Shown here in pieces: positions 18,859-42,900 of a stretch of 64,000 nt of DNA. The position numbers were made by a program, and so were the translations under genes. How positions within the stretch are numbered: the stretch's first letter is position 1; every line of letters begins with the position of its first letter. This DNA is from Mesodorylaimus sp. YZB2_4 (Eukaryota > Nematoda > Enoplea > Dorylaimida > Dorylaimidae): positions 62,001-126,000 of the forward strand of contig JASANH010000781.1 in the NCBI GenBank assembly GCA_030248295.1, written 5' to 3'. Below the pieces are notes generated by a model. The model was not told the DNA's origin and did no database searches. It saw nothing but the letters and a program-made list of their open reading frames with translations.

Positions 18859-21524
18859 CTAACGCCCCTGACCGTTAAACCAATTAGCAGGGTTCAGTAT
18901 ATTGCCCCACAAGCCATTCATGGGATTCTCTATTCCTAGTGTTTCTCCAAGGAATGGTGGCCACAGTGGTTTCTTGGTGGTCGTGGGAACTGGGGTCGTT
19001 GTCGTCGTTTCGGGCTCTGGTGGATCAGTTTCGAGTGGGAAATTATCAAAAAACCAAGTGCGTCGTGTTGTTTCCTCAGTTGTATCCTCTCCCAGGTTTG
19101 GTTCGGGTGTTGTCTGTTCCTCCTCTGGCTCTGGTGTCTGCTCTTCTGGTGGGGTTTCCTCTTCAGGCGGTGGAGTTGTTGTGGCCTTGGTCGTCGTAGT
19201 GACCTTGATGGTCGTGGTGGTCTTAGCGATGGTTGAAGTGGTGGGTGCAGGTTTTCTTGTTGTTGTTGTTGGCACTGGTGCATCGCAGTATCGATTTCCA
19301 GGTGTCCAGCTTAGCGTCGATCTGGTTGTTGACGTTGAATCGCAAAATCCTTTCGCACTAGTATCAAACCAAGACAAACCCACATCATTGCTTCTGTCCA
19401 CAGTCACACCGACAGTTTTCATACAGTCGACATATTGGTTCTCGTATTTGCTCACAGTGCCTTTAAATCGAACAGTTTGGACGCATGGGCACAGCAGGTC
19501 GTTCCAGGATGTGTAGCAGTCGTTAGTAATAAAACTGACTGACTTGCAATCCTTGACAGTGTCGCAGTATGAGATGCCAGTCGGGGTCGGTGCAGCGACT
19601 CCAGACGCAGCGTATTTCTTGGCAACACACGAGCGGATAGTCTCAGCATTGACTGATGATGAACAGTAATTATTGACATTCTCAATGGAAATAGCAGCCA
19701 GCAGGAAAAGTACGCTGAAAAATGTCAGAAATCACAACCTGCTTATTTAGCTGCTGTAAAATCAATATCCAAGCATTCAGGAGAGCCTATAGCTGATCCT
19801 TATCCAGGGCACCGTTTTGCCGTTGTTTTTCAGGTTATCGCACTATTTATGGATTTGTATACGTGCTTACAGAGGAGAAATTGACAGTTACAGCACAGCT
19901 AGGACCATTTTACACCGCTGGTACCGCTATAAACGAAGCCTGCCAGCCTAAATCTGCTGGAAGCTGCTTGGTTTTTTCTACGGCAAATTCATCGACTGCT
20001 CAGGCGACTGCCATCGACCCAAGCTAAAATTTATCTGAAACTTACTTTTACCCAGTTTGCTCTTTCTCCGCTAATCGTAAGCTACTTTTCTTGACCTGTT
20101 CCAGCCTTCATGAGCGCCCCTAAATTTTTCTCCGCACTCATGGTGGTTACTTTTTATATAAAATATGGGAGCTATAAAAAAAGATACCCTGTGGCGAAAC
20201 CCAACTTTACCGCGTTTGTGTGCATAGTAGAGAATGAAGCAAAAACAGCGCTTGATCTCCTATATCTTAACTCGGCACTAACGAGCAGGATGTGTTTCCA
20301 ACCTGAAACTTGCTCTATTCGTTTCTTTGTCTATTTTTGCGTGTCTTATCACTTTCTATCTAATCCTAGGCTTAGGCTTTGGCTTAGGCTTAGTCTGGCG
20401 CTTCCTTGTTTGCAGATTCTTCAGACTAAAAAATGCGTGTCTCCGTTAGCCGTGTCTTCTAAAGCGTGCGGAAAAAGTAAACACATCCTGCTCGTTAGTG
20501 CCGCGTTATATCTCATATCTAACGTCGCACAGACGCCAACAGGGTAAAATTGAGTTCAATCGTATCTTTTCTCTCGTCGTAAGCGAACAAGCTCAATGCG
20601 AAAATCAGAAGAGCAAGGTTAAAAAAGGTGCCCAGGGTAAAGATTCTAAGCGGCTGGAAAGTGGTGAGTACTATTTGCGGGGGAGTAACTATCACTTTCG
20701 GCTCATTCTAGGCATGACTTACTCATGGCTTGCATTCGCCACACTAAATTCATCTTCAGTCAACTGGAAATTGGACAGCGATTTCTTCGCACACGCTTGC
20801 AACTCATTCCTTAAGCCGATCAAAGCCTTCGGGAAGCAGAGAGCTCTCGCTCTGCTACTGGCTTCTGGGGCCAGTGGGTCATTGCAATTGTTGCTAAATG
20901 CTCAACGAATAAAGCTCTGTCTATTCAATTTAAAAAAAAAACATGCTTACTCCTTGAGACATGCTCGAATGGCCGAAATTTGCAAATTGGTCGAGACCGC
21001 GTTGTTAGGTTTTGGTAATAAAGTTCTTGGATCTTTATTTTTGTTCAGTTGCAGTTTAATACATCGATTAAAACCTTGGTATTGCGAGTTGCAGCTGGAG
21101 CTTGGGACAGACTAGAATCAAGCTGGGTTGTTAGCTTCCAGTCCAGGCTCTATTGAGACACAATTTTTAGTGGTCTTACTGTTTCCATTAGAACAAACAC
21201 TAGAGTGCGGGACTAAAGTCCATTGGCTAGGCAGCTTAGTAGATTCTGGTCTGAAACTAACTTTCACGCACCCTAATGAAATTGTCAAAGCCAGCTTCTG
21301 ATCTATCTGGGCTTAACCAGACTCCAGTGCTGTAATAAGTGTCACAGAATTGCGCAGCATGCGTAAAATATGGTTTCGGACTACATTAGGAGTCAGAAGT
21401 TTTTCATGCCCCATTCCTTTCATGCTGCACTAATTCAAAGATATCATGGCTGACTTACCTCCACAGTCACAATCACAATCACATAAAATAAAATAAAAAT
21501 CCCCACAATTCCGCTTCCACTCAT
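18859..21524 (-). CDS. Secreted Cys-module and Thr/Pro-rich protein, copy L
   Basis: Model: exons 21459-21524, 20951-21111, 20723-20893, 18859-19714, giving 417 residues with every phase matching. Exon 1 is a hydrophobic leader (MSGSGIVGIFILFYVIVIV). Exons 2-3 carry one Cys module (CNSQYQGFNRCI...IRACL...C...CFPK...ACAKKS). Exon 4 carries a second Cys module, a Thr/Pro/Glu-rich mucin-like tract of about 90 residues, a conserved TWFFDNFPLE block and the tail LGIENPMNGLWGNILNPANW. The gene at 24865-28125 on the opposite strand has the same order, intron phases and tail. Exon 4 opens with a signal-peptide-like VLFLLAAIS, so two genes cannot be excluded, but I found no separate start exon for it. 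The family is not recognised; the product is probably extracellular and O-glycosylated. Confidence 0.65.
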
Positions 21525-23285
21525 GGCGAATTCTTCGATTTGTAGACACCAATTTTTGGTGCACTAGAACAAACGTGAATGCGTTTCCCCTTTTATCGAG
21601 TCAACTTCACCCATGCGACCCGTCGTCAATGTTTGCGTACAGCACCTGTCAGGTGGTCGTAAGTAAAGTTATGCTATGGTGAATACCAATTTACTAGCTT
21701 GCATCACAGATCAGCAAAACGATGCCATAAAAGGCGACCTTTGCGATTACGTTAGGCGTGTTGGAGAAAAATAGGTCTTGGAGGCCAAGCGAAACGATCT
21801 CATTTAAGAGGGGGCGCGTTTTCGGTATGCTAGCTGTTTTGAAGACAAACGTGGAATAAAAATCTAATAAACATTATGTACTGCGTGATAGCCCTTGTAT
21901 TCTAGGTCAGAAAAGTCAAGTTTCATGGCGATTTTATTGGCTGTTCATTCAAAGCATATCTATTAGTCGTGTTTATACTCATTGGTAATCATGGAAACAT
22001 TGGAAATCTTCCGATTCTGTTTTCAACTAAAATGAAAATTATTCTAGAAGTTGGCAGCTAGGCAGCAATAGCCAAAATTTTGAAGTTTCCTCTTTGGTTT
22101 TTGGCAAGGTGGCACACTGCCTCGTTGTATTGCTTTTGTTCCATTTTGATCCTGCATACTGGACACTTTTAGCACACAAACGGGGGAGGGGGGCACAGAA
22201 CCTACAATCTGGTGATTTTTGTCACCATATTAGGGTAAGACGTACTGTATTTGCTGCAGATGACAAAAAATTCAAAAGGCACCCTGGATGCAGATTATAT
22301 TTCACGGTTCAAAGGTTCAAAACACTGCGGGTTCCCTGTGTCTTCACTGGAAGCACCTCCACACGAGGGCATACTGGGTGAGCAGGGGCTTAGGCTTAGC
22401 TTAGGGACCTTCCCGACTGGTGTTCGAGGACAGTTTCCCAATTCTCTACTCCTTGGGTGGGCGTCCGCCATTTGACAGTAGCAGGGGTGAAGCTGGCTTT
22501 GAACGCCTGGCTCAGAGCCAGGTGTCCAAAGCCAGCGACGAGCTACTAAAGTGCCATCCTCCTTCCGAAACGTAGAACCTCGGCCTTCCAGCCGTTTGTT
22601 GGCCAGCAAGGCGGATCAACGCCTGAACAAGCTGAGCCGTCGCCTCCCAACTTTTCCCTTTCGGACCAGATGCCATTCCAGGGAATACGAGTCCTGATGA
22701 AGCCGAAATTGCATTATTGAGAATGAACGACCGAGGAGAAGAGAAGACAAAAAGTTTTTAAAGTTTGAACGCGGACTACTGGTGAAGATCAAAGGTGTTT
22801 TTTGTCATCAAAAGTTCAAAAATTTGCTGCGGTCGACCACTGGCCGCTACCCCTACCCCTCCCCCGACCGCACCTGACCACTTTTTGTCATCCCCCCCCC
22901 CAGACTGCGGTCGACCTTCATGGATGGCCCCCTATAAATATCTGTGCGACTTGTCTAGCGAGTGAGCACACGATTTCGCTGCGGTCGCAAACAGTCTCTG
23001 TCTCTAGCATTGACGCATGTCTGCCTAGAAGGGTACAGATTAAAAATTAAAAATATGCTGTTCGCGTCCTCCCATTCAATTTATTTTCGCACAGGGCAGC
23101 GAGAATAACGGTTGACGTGCTATAGAGTGCCTCAGCGACGCCCGCGGGAAATTTAAAAGTTCAAGTTGCTGGAACCTGTGTACTTATTCCACTGGTTGTT
23201 CCATGGAGTGCAATGTTTGTTACGCAGGTTAGACAGCAGCGACTGACCCAGATTTTCTGCACAGTTTTTGCGGCACCATGTTCCA
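21525..23285. other. Left part of the spacer between the divergent paralogs
   Basis: This stretch must contain the promoter of copy L. I see no obvious TATA box, coding exon or repeat with defined ends. A poly-C run occurs near 22893. Confidence 0.4.
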
Positions 23286-23289
23286 TAGA

Positions 23290-23720
23290 GTGCGGCCGCG
23301 GTGGTGCAGCAGTTCGGCATTCGTCTCTCCGTATTGCTTGGGATCGAGTGGCTGGACTCGTGCCAGTGCCTGGTTCGATCCCCGGTGATGGAGGCCGGTT
23401 TGCTAACCGTAAACCCTCGCTGACCTTGCACACCAGGCCGTGGGTGACTCACCCAGTACCGCCCAGCTGCTCCGAGTGGAGCGACGAACGCCAAACGAGT
23501 AGACAGCACCAATAGGGTTCAAAGCCCACCCGCCATCGTCCGAGGAAGTCGTTGTCCAGTCCAGGATGCCCTCGTGTGCAGGGTCTCCTAGTGGAGACGC
23601 AGATGGAAGCTGCTGTGTGTGCTTGTCCCCGCTCAGTACTGCTTATTGAAGGTTTGACTGCTGGCCTGGCCGGCCGGCCTGCTGCTGGCCGGCTAGAGGC
23701 AAAACGGGCTTCGGCCCACA
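23290..23720 (+). repeat. tRNA-like SINE, different family
   Basis: The head GCGGCCGCGGTGGTGCAGCAG resembles an A box. About 85 bases on, GGTTCGATCCCCGGTG is a good B box, so a polymerase III promoter is plausible. A GC-rich tail with the hairpin GGCCGGCCGGCC follows near 23670. Intervening loops are too long for a functional tRNA. No second copy was noticed in the window, so its repeat status is inferred from the tRNA-like head. Confidence 0.45.
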
Positions 23721-24054
23721 AAAATTTTAAGAAAATGTTTCATAGAGTTCCTAGCAAAATCTGCGCGTACTGTAGTTATAGTGAAACGAGCAGTATGAAT
23801 TAACAGCAGATTATCCTATATGTCTCCAATTTGAAAAAGTAAAAAGCTATCTCGCGTGATAAAACTCAAGTCGACACGTTTATGTCATGAGATGAAACAT
23901 CTGTGTCGATTTTGTAATGAGGTGCGTCCTGCGTTTTTGCGCTTTCTTTAAGGAGCGAGGCTCGTAAGCCAGAGGGTATACGCGATCAGAGGCGCATAAG
24001 TCAGTTTCAGACCAGGATCTCCCAAGCTGGCAAGCCCAGGGATTTTTCTCGCAC

Positions 24055-24240
24055 TTTAGTGTATGCTTGGAAAGCTGAAGAGTCATGCCATGTCATACTT
24101 CATCCATAGCCAAGCATTGTACAGCGCACTCGAGGGCTATATTTGACAATTATTTTTTACCTAGGCGGGAGTCGAACCCTCCCCTGAGTGGTTTAATTTC
24201 TTAGTGGAGACCCCTTCAGCATTTCTCAGCGGGCGTTCAG
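24055..24240 (-). repeat. tRNA-derived SINE, copy B (inverted)
   Basis: Read on the minus strand, the B-box stem GGGAGGGTTCGACTCCC is followed by CCTAGGTA, an ATTGTCA step, CCTCGAGTGCGCTGTAC and GCTTGGCTATGGATGAAG. This is the same series as copy A at 5879-6300. The A-box side is degraded. Confidence 0.6.
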
Positions 24241-24864
24241 CACAGCGGGATAATTTTGCTTCCATAACAGGAGTTATTTTACAATATAGCAGTTTTTCTC
24301 AGCTCGATCGCTCTCTGTATTCTTGAAACGCGGGGCTTCTCCGTTAACCTCGCCATTAGCTGCTTACACTGCTCAAAATGAGAGAGTCGGTGTCAAATCG
24401 AGGTTACAGGTGGTAAGTTTTCTTTTAGTTATGATTTTTTTTGGCTCCTTCCCTCCCTGACAGGAATTTTCATCAGCGGAAAACACGGCTAACCGAAAAA
24501 CACGATAGCTGTGTATTAAAACCTACTTGCAAACAACTAATGACGCATCTCATGACGCACGCCCCCCCCCCGATCAATCTAGTCCTGTGTTTTCGCCATT
24601 GAAATTCCCAGGCCTTGGTTTAACCACCTCATTCACCCTTACCATGTGAACCTGCCATGACAGACCCCGTTTCTGTGAAAATGTATGAAATAACTACAAG
24701 TCAATTACACAGCTCCTAGAATTCCAGTTTGTGCGAGGACAACTCGTGTTTGGACCTGTTTGGGAACAGCGAATTCAGAGACAGGTATTTCAAATTTTTC
24801 AGTGACAATCGTTCTACGCTGTCCCCGTCGTCGGACGTCACTCCTGTCATTGCCTATTAGAGAA

Positions 24865-27800
24865 ATGTTTAACCTATTGACCCCAGCGATTGCCCTGATT
24901 TTTTTGTTGTCATTGACAAAAGTAGGGCGCCTGTCCGACAAAAGTGACGTCATTGTGATAGTGCTGTATTTTTTAGGCTCTGACTGATGAAAACTGCAAC
25001 TCTCAATGGCTAGCTTATGGCCAGTGTATGCGCCAGGCTTGGCTCAACCAGCTGGATGATATCACTGGATTGGCAAAACCTGTTGGATCTGTCATGAAAA
25101 ATTTGCATATTTCCCAAATACGGGCGTGCTTACAAAGGTCAGGTGCCTGGCCTGGTGCCTTGATAAATCATTATTATATATCGCCAGATTTTTTAAGCAG
25201 TGTTTATTTTTTGATAAATGGCATGCTTCTCAGGATGGGATGGAAGAATCTACCCTGTATGGACCAGCATGGGGGTCAGACTTGATTTTAAAAGGGCGAG
25301 GGAACAGATTGGAAGCCGAGGCATGCCCGTCTGATCCCCGTGTCAATTCATGGCTGCCTCATATTGACAATGAGCAGGAGATTTGCATGGCCTCAATTCT
25401 AAAATCACCCAGTTTCAGGTTCAACTGTATCGACCCATTGACCCCCTCAGATGGATTGACACGAGCTCGGACAACGTGTTTTCCTAAAATTCTGCAAACG
25501 ATCAAATCTGAAGTTCAAAGATGCATTCAAAAAGAGTTTATCGGATATAAGTTGCCAGATGACGACTTTTCGACTCCTAGTAATATGACGAAGTAAGTGC
25601 CCCACTAAAAAAAGTTCTAAGAGCAAGGTGCCAGCGGAGGAAAGGGCGGTAATATGAGACCTCATGCTCTTGCAATGGTGTAGCTAAATGCTACAGGCTC
25701 TTTGTCAAATAGGGACAATGCCCAGTGGAGGTTTTCCTGTTAGCCGTGCAGTCCTGGAAAGAGATCTCACTGCTGTGGGCTGGAATTCGGTAAATGACAT
25801 CTTATGACTTTCCAGGTATATAATGATAATAAGATGCCATGATAACATGCAATGCTATGCTATATTTTGCTATGCCAGGAAGCTTATCAGCCCATCTGAA
25901 TAGCACAGCACAAATATGAGATAAACAGAATTAAATGGTCTAAAAGCTATGAAGCAATGAATCTACAGCACTAACTAACTCCCCGGTTAGTAGACCGAGT
26001 CGTACATTCCAATTAGTGCTCCTATCCATGGGAATCTACTGTACATTAAGATAGGCACGGCTAACAGGAAAACATTTGATTAGATGCAGCTACACGATTC
26101 TGTTTTCATATCTGGAAGTGGGACTGAAAATCATGGCCTCTTTCATGGCATCGATACTAATCTGTTCAAAAACTGTAACAACATTTCAGAATCTTAATTT
26201 CCAGCTTAGGGATAATAATCATTCTTACTTACTTATCTTTTTAAAAAATTTTACATGCAGCATAGCGTAATAAGTGCATTGAGATTGGAATTTTCAGTCG
26301 ACTGGCAGTCGCTGCACTTTTGAGAGTCTTCAAGAAACATTTGTACCTTTGCAGCAGCTTGTGCGTGGTGACGGTGAGCTGCTCGATAGGCTTCAAAAAA
26401 ATTTATTGTCATGCACTACTTCAGAGCTTGTTGTGAAGCCTGGGTCGGACAGCCAGCTATGAGATTTTTCTGCTGTGTTTCGTAGACCAGCGACAATGCA
26501 GGCCTTGCTCAAAACATTGAAGGTTACGAGCAGATTGTTGTGCGTCTCTAACCTAATTTCCCCTCAAATTTCACACTTGCAGTATCTTGGAAGTTTGGAC
26601 GGCGCGCTATGATGTAGAATAGAAAGTGCGATTTCCTAAAATTTTGGACTTATAACTGCTTGAAAACTGGTTTCAGGCGCGTTGAATGTTGAAAAAATCA
26701 ATATTCCGGAATGATGCTAAAGCACATGGTAACTAATCCTATGATCAGTAGACCACAGCCAAACCGACTTTTTTCAGTTCCAGTGAGAGGCACAAGTACA
26801 GTATACTGCAGTGCACATTCATACTGATTTCATGTATATTTTTCAATCTTCTTGCTTTTGGATTAGGCTAGGTCAAGATTTGGAAAAAAACGAGGTTGGG
26901 GTGAGAAAATATGCGGCGAGGCAGCTGACAGCGCAGAGGTCGAGTCTCTCCGACAAAGAATGCAATTAATGACAGCTACAGCAGGGTTTAATGGCTGACT
27001 GTTCTTCCTAGGCAACCTTTCGTCCCTTCAGTTGTACCCCATGCATTGCTCCTTGATCATTAGTTTGGTGTCTGATTTTTTAGCGTCCTTTTACTCATCG
27101 CTGACGACGCTTTTCTTCACCCAATCCAATACTGTCCATCATCAGTCACCCGAGGAAACCTTGTCGCGTGTCTTCGAAGCAAGATTCCATCAACAAGCAC
27201 TTTATCACCCTTATCACTAAAACCAGACCCCGTTTCGTCCACTGACAAAACCACGGCTTTCTGTTCGGCTCGGCGTCAATGCAAGTCCAGTAGTTCCCTG
27301 ACAACCGAGTGCGAAGATATGTGGAGGCAGCAGGTTCGCAAACAATTATGCAAATGTGCTGATAATGTTCGATCACAGTTTCTTGGCGATCGATTTGTTA
27401 GAGAATACGAATCATGCGCACGAAACGCAGCCAGTGGCTCGACATTGTCCAATAGCCTCAGGAATGATATCATTTTCGACTGGTTAGACGACTACTTAAA
27501 ATCGACATGCTCCTCATCGCCAGCCCTTTTGTCCAGTATTAGTTGGAACCAACCAGCCACAGTCTGCGATATCGAAACCACGACTTTCAGACCACCATTC
27601 ATTTTTGTCACATCAGAAATCACTGATCATTTTGTACCTGCCAAGACCATTTCTACAAAAAAGCCATCAACAGTAGTATCAAGCACCGCTGCCTTGTCAC
27701 CAGTTACCACCACTCAATCACAAACTCAGTCACCAGAGTTCCCAATTTTTGAAACTACAACTGAGCCAAATTTTCATACATTTTTTCCGCTGGTACCCGA

Positions 27801-28125
27801 ACCGACGACGGTGGCAACCCAAGAGGTCGGGACGCCAGGACCTGAATTTCCTAATCCTGATACTGATTTATCAGACACCACTACTCACACATTTTTCTTT
27901 GAAAAATACACCTTTCAACCAGATGAAAACCCTGAGACATGGACGCCTTCTTCAAGCATCCAAGCAACTACGACTGAAGGCAACATCCTTGGCATCGATA
28001 ACATATTTGGTATCAAGGCATTTGGACAAGGTGGGCTGTTTGGGAATATTCTAAATTTTACTCAAGTGTCGAATGGATTACAAGGATTGTTCCACATATC
28101 AAAGGGAAATCAGTCAATTAGTTAA
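24865..28125 (+). CDS. Secreted Cys-module and Thr/Pro-rich protein, copy R
   Basis: Model: exons 24865-24921, 24977-25137, 25188-25592, 27084-28125, giving 554 residues with all phases matching. The start opens a signal peptide (MFNLLTPAIALIFLLSL). Exon 2 carries ENCNSQ...YGQCMRQ...IRACLQ, closely parallel to copy L at 18859-21524. Exon 3 is about 78 residues longer than its counterpart and holds an extra Cys segment before the shared NCIDPL...CFPK block. Exon 4 has a Cys module, a Ser/Thr/Pro tract, the THTFFFEKY block and the tail LGIDNIFGI...GNILN. Intron 3 (1491 nt) contains a TIR3 element. A polyadenylation signal AATAAA lies at 28172-28177, close to the stop of the convergent collagen gene. 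Family unknown. The last exon could be a separate gene, but the identical phase-2 junction in both copies favours one. Confidence 0.65.
25731..26073. mobile_element. TIR3 element, copy 1 (343 bp)
   Basis: It starts GTTTTCCTGTTAGCCGTG and ends with its exact reverse complement CACGGCTAACAGGAAAAC, 18-bp perfect terminal inverted repeats. The interior is non-coding. No clear target-site duplication is seen. Shorter relatives lie at 45598-45720 and 50698-50827. It sits in intron 3 of the copy R gene. Confidence 0.85.
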
Positions 28126-28193: not shown

Positions 28194-29556
28194 TTAAGCC
28201 TTGGCCTTAGCTTTAGCGCGCTTGTTCAAGTAGCCGCCAGGTTGAGCGCCTGGACTTGTCTTGGGCGGCGGGCAATGTTCCTAAAGAAATCGGTATTAGG
28301 TCAAGAAAAATTTTTGGCAAGATTGTCTTACGCAAGTTCCAGGAGGACCTGGTGGACCTCGTTGACCAGGTATTCCAGGTTGGCCAGGCGTTCCATCAGG
28401 TCCCTTATCTCCTGGGTCGCCAGGAGGACCCGCTGGGCCTGGCTTAGCAGGACTGGTCGAATCAGGTCCAGGGGGACCCTGAAATTGTCAGCTTAGAAAA
28501 AAGATCAGATGAGCAGAGTATGGACTTACTTGTGGTCCAGGAGGTCCAGGTGGCCCGGCCGGTCCAGGTTGTCCAGGCGGGGCACCACTCAGTACTTTCC
28601 CTGGATCCCCAGGTGGTCCCTTATCGCCGGGATCTCCAGGCAATCCTACGACAAATAACATCCACGATTCGACAAAGCTATTTGGATTTTTTGCATGTAT
28701 CCAGCTGCCTACCTTGTGGTCCGGGTGGTCCTAAAATAAAACTGGATTGGCTCTGCTAGAGCCCGATTGATTAAGTGAGTCCTTACCAGGCGGTCCAGGT
28801 TTACCAGGCTCTCCATCGGCACCAGGCGCTCCCTAAAAAAGTACTGCTGCGAGGATAGCCAGTTTTATTCCCAAATCAAGCCGTACCAAATCGCCCGGGG
28901 GGCCAGGGGGTCCTGAAAACTGCTGTTAGTCAGAGTTATAGTTAACAAATAGCAGAAGAATACCTTTGGGTCCAGGCTGACCAGGCTGACCAGGTGGTCC
29001 TAGAAAAAGTCATCAAATTTGAGTTTACACCAGCTATATGCCGTCTGATCTTGGCCATACCAGCTGGGCACTAAAATAAAAAGAAATTAGATCAAAAAGG
29101 CCTCAAAAATTTGAAGATTCACCTTCACACAAGGTGGCTTTGTTGGTGGAGCAGGCAATAGGGTTCCTACAAATGGACTATACTAGGTCAGACTTCGATG
29201 TTGCATCACGTCAGTGCATACCATCTTTTCCAGGAGGTCCCTAAAAACAGGTTCATCTGATTTCTAGCACTACCAACTCTTTCAGATTACTTACAGGATT
29301 TCCAGGCTTGCCAGGGGCACCAGGTTTTCTAAAAAAAAGTTGAATTCTCCACAAAGGGCAGCCAATTTAAGTTGCTTCCTTATCCTTACCCATCGCGTCC
29401 AGGTGGCCCCTAAAAAAAGAACATCTAGTTTTTCGCTGACATAAATTCGAAAGAAACTTACAGGTGGCCCAGCTGGCCCTAGTGTGCATTCACCTGAAAC
29501 AGATGACACTCTAATTTTTTAAGGCAAGAAGTATGAAGAGCTTACATTTTTGAGCT

Positions 29557-29588
<32 letters not shown>

Positions 29589-29993
29589 ACCTGGGGCCGG
29601 ACCAGGTGCTGGATATGGAGCTGGTGCGGGTGCGGGACCAGGACCAGGAGATGGATATGACGTGCCGCCTCCTGGATAATTGGCCTGACGAGGCGAACGA
29701 TGATTACTAAATATTTGTAGCTGCAACATTTCTTTCCACATGTCTCTCGAACGTGTCTAGAAATATGATGATGATGAAAATTTTGAATTCCCGCCAAAAC
29801 TGTTTAATCTGCTCACCTTGCAAAAATCCACCTCATTTTGCATGAATGAGTGAATCGTTTGTACATAATTATAAATCAACGGCAAAGTGACCACGCAGGC
29901 CAGAACAGCTGTGGTACTGAATGCAACAGCAAAGAATGCCACATTGCGCATAGACTTTTTCACGGGTTTCAATGGTGGATCAAAGGCGCCCAT
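28194..29993 (-). CDS. Nematode cuticle collagen
   Basis: Fifteen exons encode 340 residues: 29817-29993, 29546-29756, 29462-29493, 29390-29409, 29295-29328, 29222-29240, 29123-29166, 29061-29070, 28964-28999, 28887-28912, 28787-28832, 28713-28730, 28530-28645, 28332-28478, 28194-28280. The N-terminus fits the cuticle-collagen leader: a short basic stretch and a membrane segment (about residues 17-41). A Pro/Ala/Gly-rich region, small Cys clusters (KCECTLG; CVKCPAG) and several Gly-X-Y blocks follow, ending in a Cys-containing non-collagen tail rich in Lys. Cuticle collagens are secreted, trimerise and are cross-linked in the extracellular cuticle. Many internal exons are 10-46 nt long, unlike the few-intron collagens usual in nematodes. 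Every junction is in phase. The start at 29993 was chosen as the first ATG. Confidence 0.92.
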
Positions 29994-30062
29994 TTTCTTC
30001 TGCTGACTCCTTCGGCGCCTGGCCAACTTAACAACCAAACCACTATTGGCCTTTTCTCGGCT

Positions 30063-30070
30063 CTTTATAT
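30063..30070 (-). promoter_or_regulatory. TATA box of the cuticle collagen gene
   Basis: On the minus strand ATATAAAGAG lies about 70 bases upstream of the collagen start codon, a normal core-promoter distance for a short 5' leader. Confidence 0.5.
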
Positions 30071-30743
30071 TACATATATCTGTTTGGGTATTTTTATCCT
30101 TCGATCGGCCTTCTTCTTTTCTTTCACAAAACTAGGCTCGCCCCGCTGCCCTGAACTTTACTGTTAACACAAAAAGTGCGCATTGAGAACATCAAGTTTG
30201 GAAGTCAGTCGGTGCCATCCCGCGGTGATGGAGTAGTGACCCAGATTCCAATAAATCAAGTACTTTACATGTCCAACACTGAACCAAATACTCCAGGAAA
30301 ATTACGAGGGCAAGACCCCCATTTGAGGCGCCAAGATTCCCAGAGGACATGTTCGTGTGTGCAATCTATTTGAGATAACAGAAAAATGGAGCAGTCAACA
30401 AAAATTCGAGGGTGACCAGCAAATAAGTGCGAGTTCTGCATAATTTATGCCATTCGATTCGAATAGCATCCTTCAAGGATTAAATTTCTGCTCTCCTGAA
30501 TAACACACCGAATGAGTCTCATTAGATGCAGTCTGAGCAAACACTATCAAAAGCGGTATCTTCTTTGAAGTTGGAAATTTCTAAAACTCTATGCCGCTTT
30601 CAATAAAAATCTTCCAAAGTAAGTTTCATCTTCGCCATAATCCACGTGCTTCTACAAATATATTAAAGCTAAAAATTTACTTTTTGACAGATGTCTCTAA
30701 ATCCATTCAACTTGAATTCGCCTCCGCTTCAAGCAAGTTTTCG

Positions 30744-36646: not shown

Positions 36647-39074
36647 TTAGTCCAACGAAAGGCCAACTGCTTCTTCTTTCTTTTCAGAACGAGAGTTGCA
36701 AGTGGCGTCGACGTATTTCTGGGCTGCTTGTTTCAAGTTGGCTCCTGAAAACAGAATCAAAAGATTCAGTGAAGTCACTGCCAAGTAAATGAACTGCAAA
36801 AGTTCGCAGAAACTCACGCTGAAGATTCTGCACAAAATATTTCTGTAGCTGCTACAGAATCGCGGCAGGTCATGCTCTAAGTCATACCGTTGCCTCTTTG
36901 CAGAATCAAGCTGCAGGCTTTGCACTGACGATGGTCGAATTAGAATCTCTGTCAAGGGCCACTGTAATTTTTACACACGTACCTCTTGCCTACTGACCCA
37001 TGAGAGATGCATACTATAAACTCTGTGCTAATATGTACGATAGGTTCAACGCAACACAGATCTAAGAAATTTTGCAGTTTCTGCATAAGGCTGAACGATA
37101 GGATTGGGGATTTGTAGTGTGAATTATGTGCACATTGATGCTGGACACAGTAAAAACTAAACAGGTTTGCTTACTGCCGCAGTAGCCGCACGATTTCGGG
37201 CAGAAGGAGCTGATCAAATTGTAGGTGACATCTGCCAGAGCAAGGCAATTTTGCTTTGCAACACGCGGTCTCTTGGTGGTTGCTGTAAAACAGACTCTGC
37301 TGTGTTTTTGCGACTGGATCCCGCAATATCTGCAGTGATCTTACGTCGCATGACTCTGAAGCCTAGGCGTTTCCTCCTTAATGCCAGACCGACGGCCTCG
37401 CTATCGCGACTTGCGCATGGTCTGCACAGGCTTTCGCAAAGTGGGTGCAGATCCTCACATCTTGCTGAAACGAGAGAGCGTATTACGTAAGTATGTCCAC
37501 ATTTGTAGGTGCATTTACGTCTAGTGGTGGTTGGCCTTGGAGTTGTAGTGGTGGTTGTGCGTCTTGTGGTAGTCGGCTTGGTGGTGGTGGTCGTCCTTCT
37601 GGTCGTCGTTGGAGTAGTGGTGGTCGTCGTCCTTCTGGTCGTCGTTGGAGTGGTGGTGGGAGTGGTGGTGGTCGTCGTCGTCCTTCTGGTCGTCGTTGGA
37701 GTAGTGGTGGGAGTGGTGGTGGTGGTGGTCCTCTTCGTGGTAGTTGGAGTGGTGGTGGGGGTCGTTGTCGGAGTGGTTGTTGGGGTAGTGGTAGGAGTAG
37801 TTGTGGTCGTGGTGGTCCTCCTAGTCGTTGTCGGAGTTGTAGTTGGAGTTGTAGTTGGGGTGGTAGTAGGGGTGGTAGTTGGAGTAGTTGTAGGGGTGGT
37901 GGTAGGCGTGGTAGTTGGGGTTGTTGTAGTAGTAGTGGTGGTTGTCGTGGTCGTGAACCTCACACCAGAAGCCTTGTCACCACCAGCAGCCTCTTCCTCA
38001 CCAGCGGCCACTCCTTGCAGCCAGTTAAGATATTCCTTCTCTAAAACATGTTGGCCGATTTACCATACGTTTTTCACTTATTCTATAGCAGCCTTTACCT
38101 GACACTTTCACCAAGAGTGCCACATACTTTGACTTGCCATCGTATTGACACTTAACAGGTTGCTGATTTTCCTTTGCGTATTCTTCCAAACGCACCAACT
38201 CCCCATTTTGCAAAACGCATCCTGAAAAACGCATAAATACCACGATTCTTCTGACTGAACTAGCTCATCTTACCAGAAGCTTGGGATTCATATTCTCCAT
38301 TGCCAGCGATGCAAACCAACTGCGATGAGCCAGCGATCCATGTCTGGCCAGCATTGTACAGTTTGCCATCATGGACGCAGCCAGCTTGATATTTGCGCGA
38401 GACCGTATTGTCGGCATTGCGAACGCACTTGTACACACCTTTCTTAGGTACAGCGAAATCAGACCCCGGGGCCAGTTCTTGACCATCGGGCAAAAGGCAG
38501 GCTGCAAAAAAGAGGCAGCTCATTGAAAATTTTTAACTCATGAGTGCTCGATTAAAGTCCTTACACACGACTTCGTATCCCAACGACAGTTCTCCATATG
38601 ATATGCATTGGAATTTGAACGATGTGGTAGAATAGGTCTGACCAGGCTTCAGTTCATTGTCGCCAACTTTTCCATTAGGCAAACAAGCTAAAAAAATTGT
38701 ATTTTTTTGAAGACCCTGGAAAAACCGGAACATCTAATAATCTTTTGTCCCAAGACCAAGCCTTATGGTTCTGAAACACTTCAAAGCCCGCTATTAACTA
38801 TATTTCACTTTTTTTATCGTTTCCGGACTTATGCGCACGACCTTTCTAGAGCTCAAGCCAGAATCAACTTTGCCTTCTGTCCTTCGAACTAAACATTTTC
38901 AAAGATGTGTAAAATAGGATTACCAGTTGGCTTGATGCCTTCACGCTTGCACTCCATTTTGATTCTTCCATCGGCCCACACAGATCCCACCTTAGCTGCA
39001 TTGCACCTTGCTTCATCGGCCTTTGCTTCATAAATGGCCACAATAGCAAGAATTGACAACACGACCAGCTTCAT
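36647..39074 (-). CDS. Secreted multi-Cys, Thr-repeat and ShK-like protein, paralog 1
   Basis: Eight exons (38924-39074, 38565-38687, 38274-38501, 38099-38221, 37519-38040, 37345-37464, 37175-37282, 36647-36744) encode 490 residues. After a signal peptide (MKLVVLSILAIVAIYEA) come Cys modules of the form GxxW...C and C...G(x)5-6G, for example CVHDGKLYNAGQTW. They resemble the fibronectin-I-like repeats of MIG-18-type nematode proteins. LNWLQG and a Glu-rich piece then lead to a Thr/Pro tract of about 145 residues, likely O-glycosylated. Next are CEDLHPLCESLCRPC, EAVGLALRR, FCPKSCGYC and a final CNSRSEKKEEAVGLSLD. Exons 2, 3 and 4 have exactly the lengths of those in the neighbour at 39947-43638, showing tandem duplication. 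Exact role unknown. Confidence 0.8.
37530..37960 (-). repeat. Thr/Pro-coding tandem repeat
   Basis: Irregular repeats of ACC-ACC-ACT-type Thr codons with Pro or Arg-Arg spacers (TTTPTTTP and TTTRRTTTTT) fill most of exon 5 of the gene at 36647-39074. The same bases give long, meaningless Val-rich and Gly/Arg/Ser-rich open frames on the plus strand. Tract length is probably polymorphic. Confidence 0.85.
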
Positions 39075-39150
39075 GTTGATCTCGAGTCTTTCGGCTTCTT
39101 CCACGAATTCACACGCAGTCGCCGTTTGATATGCGATACTCTGGGCGATC

Positions 39151-39162
39151 GGCTTATATTTA
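39151..39162 (-). promoter_or_regulatory. TATA-like box of ShK-like paralog 1
   Basis: On the minus strand TTAAATATAAGCC lies about 80 bases upstream of the start codon at 39074. Confidence 0.4.
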
Positions 39163-39946
39163 AGCGTCTTCCTGTGTCCAATTTGAATGGCTTGCGTAGG
39201 TGCTCATCCTTGAGACAATATCTGGACAGCAGCTGGTCTTTTTGTAAACTAGCCTTCTATCAATCAGATAGAATCTATGTGAACAGAATCTAAGCATTCT
39301 TGGAGTTATATCCTAGAAAGTAAACAGAATTTCGTTATTAACAGGGGAAATCGAAACTTGAAAGAAATCGCCGCTCTTTACACACCTGCTGTGTCTTCCT
39401 GATTTGAAGCTGGCTATGCGCTTAGACGAATTGATTGAAGATGGCTAGCATGAAATGTATAAGCGTGGCACTGGGAACTAAATGAGCATGCGCGGCAAAC
39501 TCTCAGGTACGTTTCTAATTTTGTCTTTTGTGGATTTTTTCATCCCACCTGGCAATCTGATTGTCTTGCATCTTATGAACGCGGAGTGGCGCATTACAAG
39601 CATGTATTGTGGATTTTGGTTCCTGCATAAGCTTGGTACCATGAATCTAGAAAAGACATGCAGTATTTGCTAGTCCGAAGTTATGCCACCTGAAACTATA
39701 TTTTACCCTGACAGGCCTTTACCTGGACCTTTATTTTACCTGCTGTAAAATGTAGTTTTAGGTAAATCTGCCAAGATCAGGTAGGGGTGGCGCGGGACCT
39801 AACCCACAAAAATAGATCAGGCTCCTATCTGGAGTTACGCATGTACAGTTTTACACATTCACAGTTTACGAAGTTTTATTTGATGACTGCCCAATGATAT
39901 ATTAGCAACCGTAAATGTGACACCATGGAAATAAACGTGGTAATAT
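39163..39946. other. Spacer between tandem paralogs
   Basis: It holds the downstream end of the 39947-43638 gene and the upstream region of the 36647-39074 gene. No coding exon or repeat is recognised; the 63-residue plus-strand frame near 39482 has no support. Confidence 0.4.
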
Positions 39947-42900
39947 TCAGCCCCTGGAACCCACTTGCTTCTTCCCCTTTCCTTTGCCCTTATTCTTGCT
40001 CTTATTCTTGCTCTTGCTCTTTTGTTTTGGCTTTTTCGTAGTCGTCACTCTTGCCGCAGTAGTGGCAACGAGTTCTTCTTCTTCGAAAGCGAACCCAATC
40101 GGGTCGCCAGGATTGTTTCTGATGCAGCTGGAACTAGCCCATCTGGAGGCGGCCGCGTTCAAGTTGATGTCTGCAAAGAACATGGATGAAGGCATGGCAC
40201 ATGGTCTGGCACTGAAACGGCATTTCGGCTCACTTCTTTCACATGCACCGCAGGATTTGGGGCACAAAGCGCTGACCAATTCCAAGCTGGAGTCTGCCAA
40301 ATCAAAGCACTGAGCTGGTTGCTGAGGCTGGGGCTGGGGCTGAGGTCTCGGGCGTCTGGTGGTTGTGAAGAATTGGCCGCCTTGACTGCCCTGGCCTTGA
40401 TTACCGTGGCTGCCATGACCACGACCTTCACCGCTGTGGGAACCAAATCCGTGACCCCAAGATGGCTTTCCTACAGTGACATGCTTGGTCATCTACTGAC
40501 CATTTGCCAACAGTGAATACTCGATACCTGTTACTTTGCCACCTGCTGAACCCTGTCCCCACCCGTTGCCCCATCCATGACCCCAACTATTGCCATTGCC
40601 GCTGCTGCTCCAGGAGCTGCTCCAAGATGGTCTGCCTGCAAACGAGCCCATTTTAATGCCGGTTTCACCCTTAGTTTGGTATAGTCTCACCAATGCCCTG
40701 ACCATTGCTCCAGGAACTGCCCCAGGAGTTGCTCCAAGATGGTCTGCCTGAAAGAGTGATCACGTGATGCCATCGCACTCGAACTGTGGGGGACTGGTGA
40801 GACGGGCTGCTGTCACCGATCACTATTTTACATTGTTTTTTTGCGCATTGCTTCTGTAGGCCACTTTTTGAAAGGAAGTAGCATGTGTTAAGTCGAGTTC
40901 CGTCCCCACACTTACCAGTCCCTTGGCCATTGCCCCAAGAATTGGTCCAGCTATTGCTCCATCGTCCACCAGCATTCCACTGTCCGGTACCTGCTGTTGT
41001 GAAGCTGGGTCGGGAAGTGACAAAGCCACCTGGCTTGTCCGGTCCGAATTTCTCGCGGCTTTCACTGCTGCTACTGCTACTCTTTTTGCCAAACCAAGCG
41101 AGTCTGGAAAACAAGTTTCTTCTATTCAGCGCGAATCCAACTGGTTCTGGTCTGATTTCGGGCGTGTCGTCGAGTTGTTCTGAGCATGATCTGGCGCACA
41201 GGGTTTTACAAATAGGATGCAGGTCTTGGCATTGTCCTGCAACAGATCCTCATTAATGGACTTGGGGCTGCTGGGAAATACTGTGGGCATGCCTTGCGGG
41301 GATCGGGTAGTCGTAGCGTGAATGACGGTAGCTGGTGGTTGGCTGATGGGAACTTCGGCTTGCGTGGGTCGGGCAGTCGATGGGGGTGCCGTTGGTTTAG
41401 GAGTAGTCGTAGTGAATTCTGGGATCGCGTCAGGTTTAGGAGTAGTCGTAGTGAATTCTGGGATCGCCGTGGGTTTAGGAGTTGTCGTCGTACCTGCAGC
41501 AGCAGTTGGGGGTCGAGTAAATCCCGATCCGCTTTCACCACCAGCTGACTCCTCTTCGCCTTCGACAGCACCTTGCAGCCACTCGTAGTATTCTGATGCT
41601 AAAACAAATTCGCACGCTAATGCATTTTTGGTGACCCGGTTTGTGCCCCGCCGTACCTGCGACTTGGACAAATTGAGCTTGGTGAGCCACGCTAGCGTCT
41701 GCTTGACATTTCAAGAATTTTCCCTGCTGATCAGCATATGAGCCAATGCGAATCAAATCACCGCTGGGCAAGATGCAGCCTGCAAGTAAACTACCTTCTG
41801 TGAAATTGATATTGTGCAGCTCGGCAGGTTTGTACATACTTCATCGGCAGGTTGCGCCTACAGTATCTGCAGAAAACATTTGTAATACGACGGGTCTGCA
41901 TTACTAGATGAGTATACTACCTCATGCTAGTGCATGAGATGCATTGCTACTGCATGAGATGCATTGCTACCGCATGAGATGCATTGCTACCGCATGAGAT
42001 GCATTGCTACCGCATGAGATGCATTGCTACTGCATGAGATGCACTGCTACCGCATGAGATGCATTGCTACTGCATGAGATGCATTGCTACCGCATGAGAT
42101 GCATTGCTACCGCATGAGATGCATTGCTACTGCATGAGATGCATTGCTACCGCATGAGATGCATTGCTACCGCATGACATGCATTGCTACCGCATGAGAT
42201 GCATTGCTACCGCATGAGATGCATTGCTACTGCATGAGATGCATTGCTACCGCATGAGATGCATTGCTACCGCATGAGATGCATTGCTACTGCATGAGAT
42301 GCATTGCTACCGCATGAGATGCATTGCTACCGCATGAGATGCATTGCTACTGCATGAGATGCATTGCTACCGCATGAGATGCATTGCTACCGCATGACAT
42401 GCATTGCTACCGCATGAGATGCATTGCTACCGCATGACATGCATTGCTACCGCATGAGATGCATTGCTACCGCATGAGATGCATTGCTACTGCATGAGAT
42501 GCATTGCTACCGCATGACATGCATTGCTACCGCATGAGATGCTTTGCTACTGCATGAGATGCATTGCTACTGCATGAGATGCATTGCTACCGCATGAGAT
42601 GCATTGCTACCGCATGAGATGCTTTGCTACTGCATGAGATGCATTGCTACTGCATGAGATGCATTGCTACCGCATGAGATGCATTGCTACCGCATGAGAT
42701 GCTTTGCTACTGCATGAGATGCATTGCTACTGCATGAGATGCATTGCTACCGCATTGCTACTGCATGAGGCAGTGGTACTACTAGTGCAATCCATCTCAT
42801 GCAGTAGTGGTGTACAGTATATCCACCTAAAGTGCACTCATACGTGTATATGCACTGATTTGATGATGTGAATTCAAATGTACCTACTTCTACACATTAG

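What the first reader, a model, noticed from the sequence alone, without database searches (positions are those of the whole stretch)
18859..28125. Inverted duplication of an unrecognised Cys-module/mucin-like gene
Two genes, 18859-21524 (-) and 24865-28125 (+), share module order, three intron positions with the same phases (0, 2, 2), CNSQ...C...IRACL motifs, the W/F-FF block after the Thr-rich tract and an LGI[ED]N tail. They are divergent around a 3.3-kb spacer. Copy R has an extra Cys segment in exon 3. I know no named family with this architecture; it may be a nematode-specific secreted family.
Basis: partly seen in the sequence, partly recalled or inferred. Interest (0 to 1): 0.75.

Follow-up and report, generated by a model that had tools for sequence, protein, structure and literature searches.

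The report
Undescribed nematode secreted cysteine-mucin gene pair
Two neighbouring nematode genes are real, intact and related members of a small, apparently undescribed family of secreted proteins that join a cysteine-locked head to a mucin-like or glycine-rich tail, probably building part of the worm's surface or cuticle; they are old relatives rather than a fresh mirror-image copy.

Summary
Both genes splice cleanly at the stated ends: L, 417 aa, minus strand 21524-18859; R, 477 aa, plus strand 24865-28125. Intron phases are 0,2,2 in both; the proteins align at E 9e-37. R's "extra Cys segment in exon 3" is doubtful: more likely intron 2, because no other family member carries it and its codon score is intron-like, though its frame is unusually open.

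Eight such genes were found in the genome. Introns 2 and 3 share column and phase in 8 of 8; 15 cysteines are invariant in 10 of 10 aligned sequences. Database proteins P0003 and P0004 run unbroken across all three junctions.

"Inverted duplication" as a recent event is not supported: L's sister is a gene on contig C110, R's is P0001, and synonymous sites are saturated. Head-to-head order is real.

No Pfam, NCBIfam or PDB relative passed its threshold for the proteins scanned. Single-module secreted proteins in the genome are distant relatives of module 1. Most likely function, inferred: a secreted extracellular-matrix (cuticle or surface-coat) protein.

The parts
21459..21524 (-). Gene L exon 1: start codon and hydrophobic signal-peptide-like N-terminus, phase 0 donor GTAAGT
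20951..21111 (-). Gene L exon 2: first half of Cys module 1 (CNSQ...C...IRACL)
   Evidence: relative P0004 reads across the matching junctions
20723..20893 (-). Gene L exon 3: second half of Cys module 1 (NCNDP...CFP...C)
18859..19714 (-). Gene L exon 4: Cys module 2, Thr/Pro-rich tract, tail motifs, stop
19285..19665 (-). Gene L Cys module 2 (10 Cys, C150-C276; 9 invariant in the family)
19063..19281 (-). Gene L Thr/Pro-rich mucin-like tract; the 140-residue tail is 26% T, 17% P
19045..19062 (-). Gene L aromatic block RTWFFD
18925..18939 (-). Gene L tail motif LGIEN
24865..24921 (+). Gene R exon 1: start codon and signal-peptide-like N-terminus; donor GTAGGG is off consensus
24977..25137 (+). 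Gene R exon 2: first half of Cys module 1
25188..25418 (+).
25419..25592 (+). Gene R exon 3: second half of Cys module 1, preferred acceptor at 25418/25419
27084..28125 (+). Gene R exon 4: Cys module 2, Thr/Ser/Pro-rich tract, tail motifs, stop
   Evidence: relative P0001
27133..27567 (+). Gene R Cys module 2 (10 Cys, C148-C292; 9 invariant in the family)
27571..27885 (+). Gene R Thr/Ser/Pro-rich tract
27886..27903 (+). Gene R aromatic block HTFFFE
27988..28002 (+). Gene R tail motif LGIDN
21525..24864 (.). 3340-bp spacer between the two start codons; carries dispersed repeats

Best explanation
L and R are intact, constrained members of an old, small family of secreted proteins. SHOWN: a hydrophobic, signal-peptide-like start; a six-Cys module 1 over exons 2-3; a module 2 with nine invariant Cys in exon 4; then a tail that differs between paralogs (Thr/Pro-rich in L, R and C110; Gly-rich in C38; Gly/Asn-rich in C260; very short or absent in C96, C28b and C449). 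Tails of L, R and C110 carry an aromatic block and an LGIxN...GxxGNILN end; C38 keeps LGIGN. INFERRED: the protein enters the secretory pathway; the modules fold as disulfide-locked, mainly helical heads that bind a partner or each other; the tail is an extended, O-glycosylated or Gly-rich spacer; the aromatic and LGIxN stretches act as hydrophobic stickers; together they make a structural component of an apical extracellular matrix such as cuticle, lining or surface coat. The pair is head to head but not a recent mirror copy. I put about 0.95 on the family and gene structure and about 0.5 on the matrix role; the stated confidence is for the whole.
For: Gene models, phases and similarity. Paralogs with the same phases. 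15 invariant Cys in 10 of 10 sequences, and introns 2 and 3 in the same alignment columns in 8 of 8 genes. P0003 and P0004 read across all three junctions, P0005 across two, P0006 across one, in contigs of 1070-1450 bases. Constraint: L vs C110 pN 0.25 against pS 0.74. Tree. Tail composition and motifs. Helical, low-confidence models. Matrix precedent for Cys-domain plus mucin proteins and for low-complexity, cysteine-rich secreted proteins in nematode cuticles (passages read in PMC11304992, PMC11925461, PMC9629831).
Against: No localisation or expression data. Fold models are poor (mean pLDDT 55.9 and 45.1), so helicity and partner binding are weakly supported. Thr/Pro-rich tails also occur in gland-secreted mucin-like proteins. 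No signal-peptide predictor was run; hydrophobicity only, for L, R and C38. Three of 8 paralogs lack a long tail, so the tail is not essential to the family.
Confidence: 0.5

Rival explanations
1. Gland or gut secretory mucin-like proteins: soluble products that lubricate, protect or act outside the worm rather than build a fixed matrix.
For: Secreted layout and mucin-like tails in L, R and C110. [quoted passage not shown]
Against: Gly-rich and Gly/Asn-rich tails with short Gly-Leu repeats in C38 and C260 look structural; no gland evidence either way.
Confidence: 0.25
2. Egg-, embryo- or sperm-surface proteins comparable in layout to nematode chondroitin proteoglycans.
For: Cys modules plus a Ser/Thr-rich tail fit that layout in general; the CPG layout is recalled.
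Against: No Pfam model above cut-off for the members scanned; no expression data.
Confidence: 0.12
3. A recent local inverted duplication produced L and R.
For: Head-to-head order 3.3 kb apart with the same exon structure.
Against: L groups with C110 and R with P0001, both well supported. 33% identity with saturated synonymous sites. No exon-to-exon inverted DNA repeat among the 3 pairs found; an L DNA query listed no match in R, with 40 of 94 candidates scored. An ancient local duplication is not excluded.
Confidence: 0.03
4. The gene models are chance ORFs or pseudogenes.
For: R's first donor is off consensus; no RNA-seq for this species was available.
Against: Shared introns in 8 of 8 genes, uninterrupted relatives from other sources, purifying selection between L and C110.
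Confidence: 0.02

Closest known systems
DPY-6 / SPIA-1 cysteine-cradle family (CCD-aECM, PF23626)
   Same: Secreted nematode proteins with a small Cys-stabilised helical domain plus long disordered regions; [quoted passage not shown]).
   Different: CCD-aECM is one C-terminal domain with four Cys, C-x22-C-x7-P-x3-C-x9-C. Here two N-terminal modules carry 6 and 9 invariant Cys with other spacings, and hmmscan listed no CCD-aECM match at E up to 10.
APPG/ABU-PQN and other low-complexity pharyngeal cuticle proteins of C. elegans
   Same: Secreted, disordered, biased composition; APPGs and IDPBs rich in cysteine (passages in PMC9629831).
   Different: APPGs are described there as largely disordered and prion-like; here Cys positions are strictly conserved in two modules apart from the low-complexity tail.
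Single-module secreted proteins on contigs C78 and C266 of the same genome (unnamed)
   Same: Same C-x9-C...C[FL]x4C...C...C framework as module 1; hhalign probability 94%, E 1e-7 over 97 columns.
   Different: One module only, 147 and 169 aa as read, no Thr-rich tail; the two share 32% identity.
Cx9C/CHCH helical hairpins (PF16860, PF05254)
   Same: A Cx9C stretch of 16-26 residues in module 1 resembles one CHCH half (best Pfam E 0.0097; PDB Mdm35 chains E 0.049).
   Different: Below cut-off (16.2 against 26.4 bits), one half only, and in a protein with a signal-like N-terminus.

Membership tests
CCD-aECM (PF23626) | Matches the Pfam model / motif C-x22-C-x7-P-x3-C-x9-C at the C-terminus | tested here: not met
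   Not listed at E up to 10 for L and R, 7 module-1 rows, 7 exon-4 rows and 6 further proteins; Cys spacings differ. HMMER filters drop most matches above E 0.1
CCD-aECM (PF23626) | Family present elsewhere in this genome | tested here: inconclusive
   0 matches in G000, but no control genome rang either
CHCH / Cx9C proteins | Twin Cx9C hairpin above the curated cut-off (feature recalled) | tested here: not met
   Best 16.2 bits against 26.4
GDNF/GAS1-type and DUF19-type Cys domains | Match to the corresponding Pfam models | tested here: not met
   Neither is listed for the proteins scanned at E up to 10; weak relatives can be lost to HMMER's filters; C449, P0002, P0005 and P0006 were not scanned
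Any solved fold | Structural match of the predicted modules | tested here: inconclusive
Mucin-like proteins | Secreted, Ser/Thr/Pro-rich tract | tested here: met
   Tail T+P: L 43%, C110 37%, R 28%; hydrophobic N-terminus in L and R
Mucin-like proteins | Dense O-glycosylation | not testable with these tools
   Needs biochemistry
The L/R family itself | Introns at the same place with phases 0,2,2 | tested here: met
   Introns 2 and 3: 8 of 8 genes in the same columns and phase. Intron 1: phase 0 in 7 of 8, at columns 22-26 of the loosely aligned signal region; in C449 only the acceptor was found
Nematode-restricted family | Present in nematodes and absent elsewhere | tested here: inconclusive
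   6 relatives from three searches of 5.8 billion proteins, none with a named organism; no nematode proteome set was on hand

The most novel reading that the evidence does not exclude
This is an undescribed family of disulfide-locked double-module scaffolds of the nematode apical matrix, in which one conserved head is fitted with interchangeable tails (mucin-like, glycine-rich, or none). In this nematode, where neither the canonical SL1 leader nor CCD-aECM was detected (both searches without a positive control), it fills the role that DPY-6-type cysteine-cradle proteins play in C. elegans, by convergent assembly of a Cys-locked helical domain with a mucin.
Probability: 0.15. Interest if true: 0.6.

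Novelty: new variant of a known kind. Interest (0 to 1): 0.4.

Why it matters
A well-delimited gene family with a fixed exon structure, 15 invariant cysteines and swappable low-complexity tails matched nothing above cut-off in Pfam or NCBIfam as searched. It gives a concrete handle (10 aligned sequences and exact junctions) for annotating nematode surface proteins outside the C. elegans models and for testing how matrix proteins trade tails. R's intron 2 is also a good test case of an open frame that is probably not coding.

Tried and rejected
R's extra Cys segment: five acceptors keep the frame; I prefer 25419 on family alignment and codon score, against the rarity of so long an open frame. 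Not settled. A first R model with two acceptors one base off gave a frameshifted protein and was replaced. GFR-alpha/GAS1-like fold and DUF19: considered because of the C.C pattern (recalled); no Pfam support. Sub-cut-off Pfam rows that I treat as chance include Lentiviral_Tat E 0.0098 for P0003, and UPF0203 E 0.011, Malate_DH E 0.029 and DX E 0.068. Module 2 as a repeat of module 1: hhalign probability 1%, E 0.05 and shuffle scores of 1.6 and 0.4 SD; not supported. PDB by sequence: nothing significant. Structure: both jobs low confidence; Foldseek and VIA-align 2 gave only generic helical matches. NCBIfam: nothing. Rfam on the window: 0 matches. SL1: RF00198 did not ring, nor in the controls; the 22-base SL1 with up to 1 mismatch gave 0 hits. 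This suggests, but does not show, a lineage without canonical SL1. Weak own-genome hits: C46 was looked at and shows no resemblance; C443, C170 and C147 (E 0.04-0.5) were not looked at. Tree rows were cut to the Cys modules; the second tree left out P0001, P0002, P0005 and P0006; C260 and C449 are long branches whose place is unsure. Literature: searches returned no paper; others (7 listed; 8 of 26 listed) showed none on this family in titles and abstract starts; two searches were for matrix precedent. Only open-licence PMC papers were searched. Papers: passages only of PMC9629831, PMC11304992 and PMC11925461; the rest listings.
Full report
What was checked. L on the minus strand has exons 21524-21459, 21111-20951, 20893-20723 and 19714-18859 (417 aa). 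R on the plus strand has exons 24865-24921, 24977-25137, 25419-25592 and 27084-28125 (477 aa). All six introns are GT-AG, and the three phases are 0, 2, 2 in both. With low-complexity masking the proteins align at 127 bits, E 9e-37, 30% identity over 262 columns. Exons 2-3, the Cys part of exon 4 and the tail align 37, 24 and 10 SD above 500 shuffles each. The named motifs and the 3340-bp spacer are there.

One doubtful detail. Five AG sites keep R's frame open to the end; the segment needs the one before 25188 or the one before 25308. I prefer 25419, where exon 3 is 174 nt against 168-174 nt in the other 7 genes and the intron falls in the same alignment column in 8 of 8. P0003, P0004 and P0005 have no such stretch. 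The codon score of the segment (-0.045 per codon) is close to intron windows (mean -0.087, SD 0.076, 342 windows) and below R's exons 2-4 (0.071 to 0.147); the score was trained on 1960 codons of the other 7 genes. Against my preference, 0 of 3396 intron windows of 77 codons were stop-free, so the open frame is unusual, and the lead of 25188 has 10 pyrimidines of 15 against 9 of 15. R's relative P0001 covers exon 4 only and cannot decide.

A family, not only a pair. A protein search of the whole genome (145 Mb, 1067 contigs) found further members on contigs C110, C38, C96, C260 and elsewhere on C28 (called C28b here), and one on C449. The fetched loci were modelled by hand. Counting L and R, 8 genes were found. 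Introns 2 and 3 fall in the same alignment columns and in phase 2 in 8 of 8. Intron 1 is phase 0 in 7 of 8, at columns 22-26 of the loosely aligned signal region; in C449 only its acceptor was found. C38 has one further intron. A 57-residue, 79%-identical fragment beside the C96 gene was not counted. Aligning the 8 with P0003 and P0004 gives 15 invariant cysteines, plus one invariant P, R, D and W each, in 10 of 10 sequences.

Relatives elsewhere and splice support. Three searches of 5.8 billion proteins returned 6 relatives in all. P0001 (source lgn) is an R-type exon 4. P0004, P0005 and P0006 (source jgi) are L-type. P0003 (jgi) and P0002 (lgn) are of the C28b type. P0003 and P0004 read without a break through all three intron positions, in contigs of 1383 and 1450 bases; P0005 spans two and P0006 one. 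Unbroken frames across all these positions are most likely spliced transcripts (inference; the record type is not stated). They come from other organisms and support L-type and C28b-type junctions directly, and R's by homology only.

History. In a maximum-likelihood tree of 14 rows L is sister to C110 (support 97/96), these two join P0004-6 (96/96), and R is sister to P0001 (100/100). In a second tree with 10 rows, L with C110 has 94/93. If P0001 and P0004-6 are from other species, as their divergence suggests, the L/R split predates those species splits. Synonymous sites are saturated (pS 0.74 for L-R and L-C110), while L-C110 pN is 0.25, which indicates purifying selection. None of 3 inverted-repeat pairs links an L exon with an R exon, and an L DNA query listed no match in R, with 40 of 94 candidates scored. 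The mirror arrangement is real; a recent mirror duplication is not supported. An ancient one with later dispersal of an L copy remains possible.

Identity. No Pfam model reaches its cut-off for the members scanned (C449, P0002, P0005 and P0006 were not scanned). The best is CX9C at E 0.0097 over 16 residues, 16.2 against 26.4 bits; the next, Lentiviral_Tat at E 0.0098 for P0003, I take as chance. NCBIfam and PDB sequences give nothing significant. Structure prediction with 12 rows was poor (mean pLDDT 55.9 for P0003, 45.1 for P0004) and mostly helical where structured; fold searches gave no usable match. Module 1 is related to single-module secreted proteins on C78 and C266 of the same genome (hhalign 94%, E 1e-7). 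Modules 1 and 2 show no significant similarity to each other.

How it probably works. The order is constant: signal-like start, module 1, module 2. The tail varies: Thr/Pro-rich in L (26% T, 17% P), C110 and R; Gly-rich in C38 (32% G); Gly/Asn-rich in C260 (35% G, 19% N); little or none in C96, C449 and C28b. L, R and C110 share the aromatic block and the LGIxN tail; C38 keeps LGIGN and, by eye, a TTTTDFFF stretch. P0004, P0005 and P0006 each carry RTWFFD twice. The reading that best fits is a secreted matrix component: a disulfide-locked head for binding or assembly, an extended spacer, and hydrophobic stickers. The precedent is published for other families. DPY-6 joins a mucin-like domain to a four-Cys cradle, and the pharyngeal cuticle contains low-complexity, cysteine-rich secreted proteins (passages in PMC11304992, PMC11925461, PMC9629831). 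The present family fails the CCD-aECM model and motif, so it may work like that group; it is not a member.

Host. A cuticle collagen N-terminal domain lies at 29757-30131, so the genome is of a nematode or a close relative. The canonical 22-base SL1 leader (recalled) was not found with up to one mismatch, and RF00198 did not ring, though nor did it in the controls. CCD-aECM did not ring either, again without a positive control. This is compatible with an early-branching nematode, but it is not shown.

Verdict. The family is real, constrained and apparently undescribed. The kind of protein is familiar. Interest is moderate.

Noticed in passing
window 20268-20508 (intron 3 of L): A 241-bp element with 30-nt terminal inverted repeats (97% complementary); 39 other places, some partial, at 79-96% identity genome-wide: MITE-like.
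   Followed up: partly
window 22327-22931 (spacer): About 605-bp dispersed repeat; 39 other places at 79-87% identity listed, a lower bound because 40 of 5739 candidates were scored.
   Followed up: partly
window 23292-23666 (spacer): A second repeat with copies at 75-79% on several contigs; by eye it holds A-box- and B-box-like stretches (recalled consensus), so perhaps a tRNA-derived SINE. ARAGORN called no tRNA in the window.
   Followed up: partly
G000 C78:150144-150584 and C266:72182-75319, 83226-83591 (partly in L030-L032): Small secreted single-module Cys proteins related to module 1, several on C266.
   Followed up: partly
G000 C96:179878-180048 (minus): A 57-residue fragment, 79% identical to the neighbouring C96 family gene: a partial tandem copy.
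   Followed up: no
window 28200-30131 (minus): Collagen-like Gly-X-Y exons (by eye) and a Col_cuticle_N domain right beside gene R.
   Followed up: no
window 37214-41710 (minus): Thr-rich repetitive ORFs with short Cys motifs (C.DLHP.C..LC..C) that look ShK-like by eye; the one scanned (40671-41249) had no Pfam hit at 0.001.
   Followed up: no
whole genome G000: No canonical SL1 22-mer with up to 1 mismatch and no RF00198 hit (the latter without a positive control), unusual for a chromadorean nematode (recalled).
   Followed up: partly
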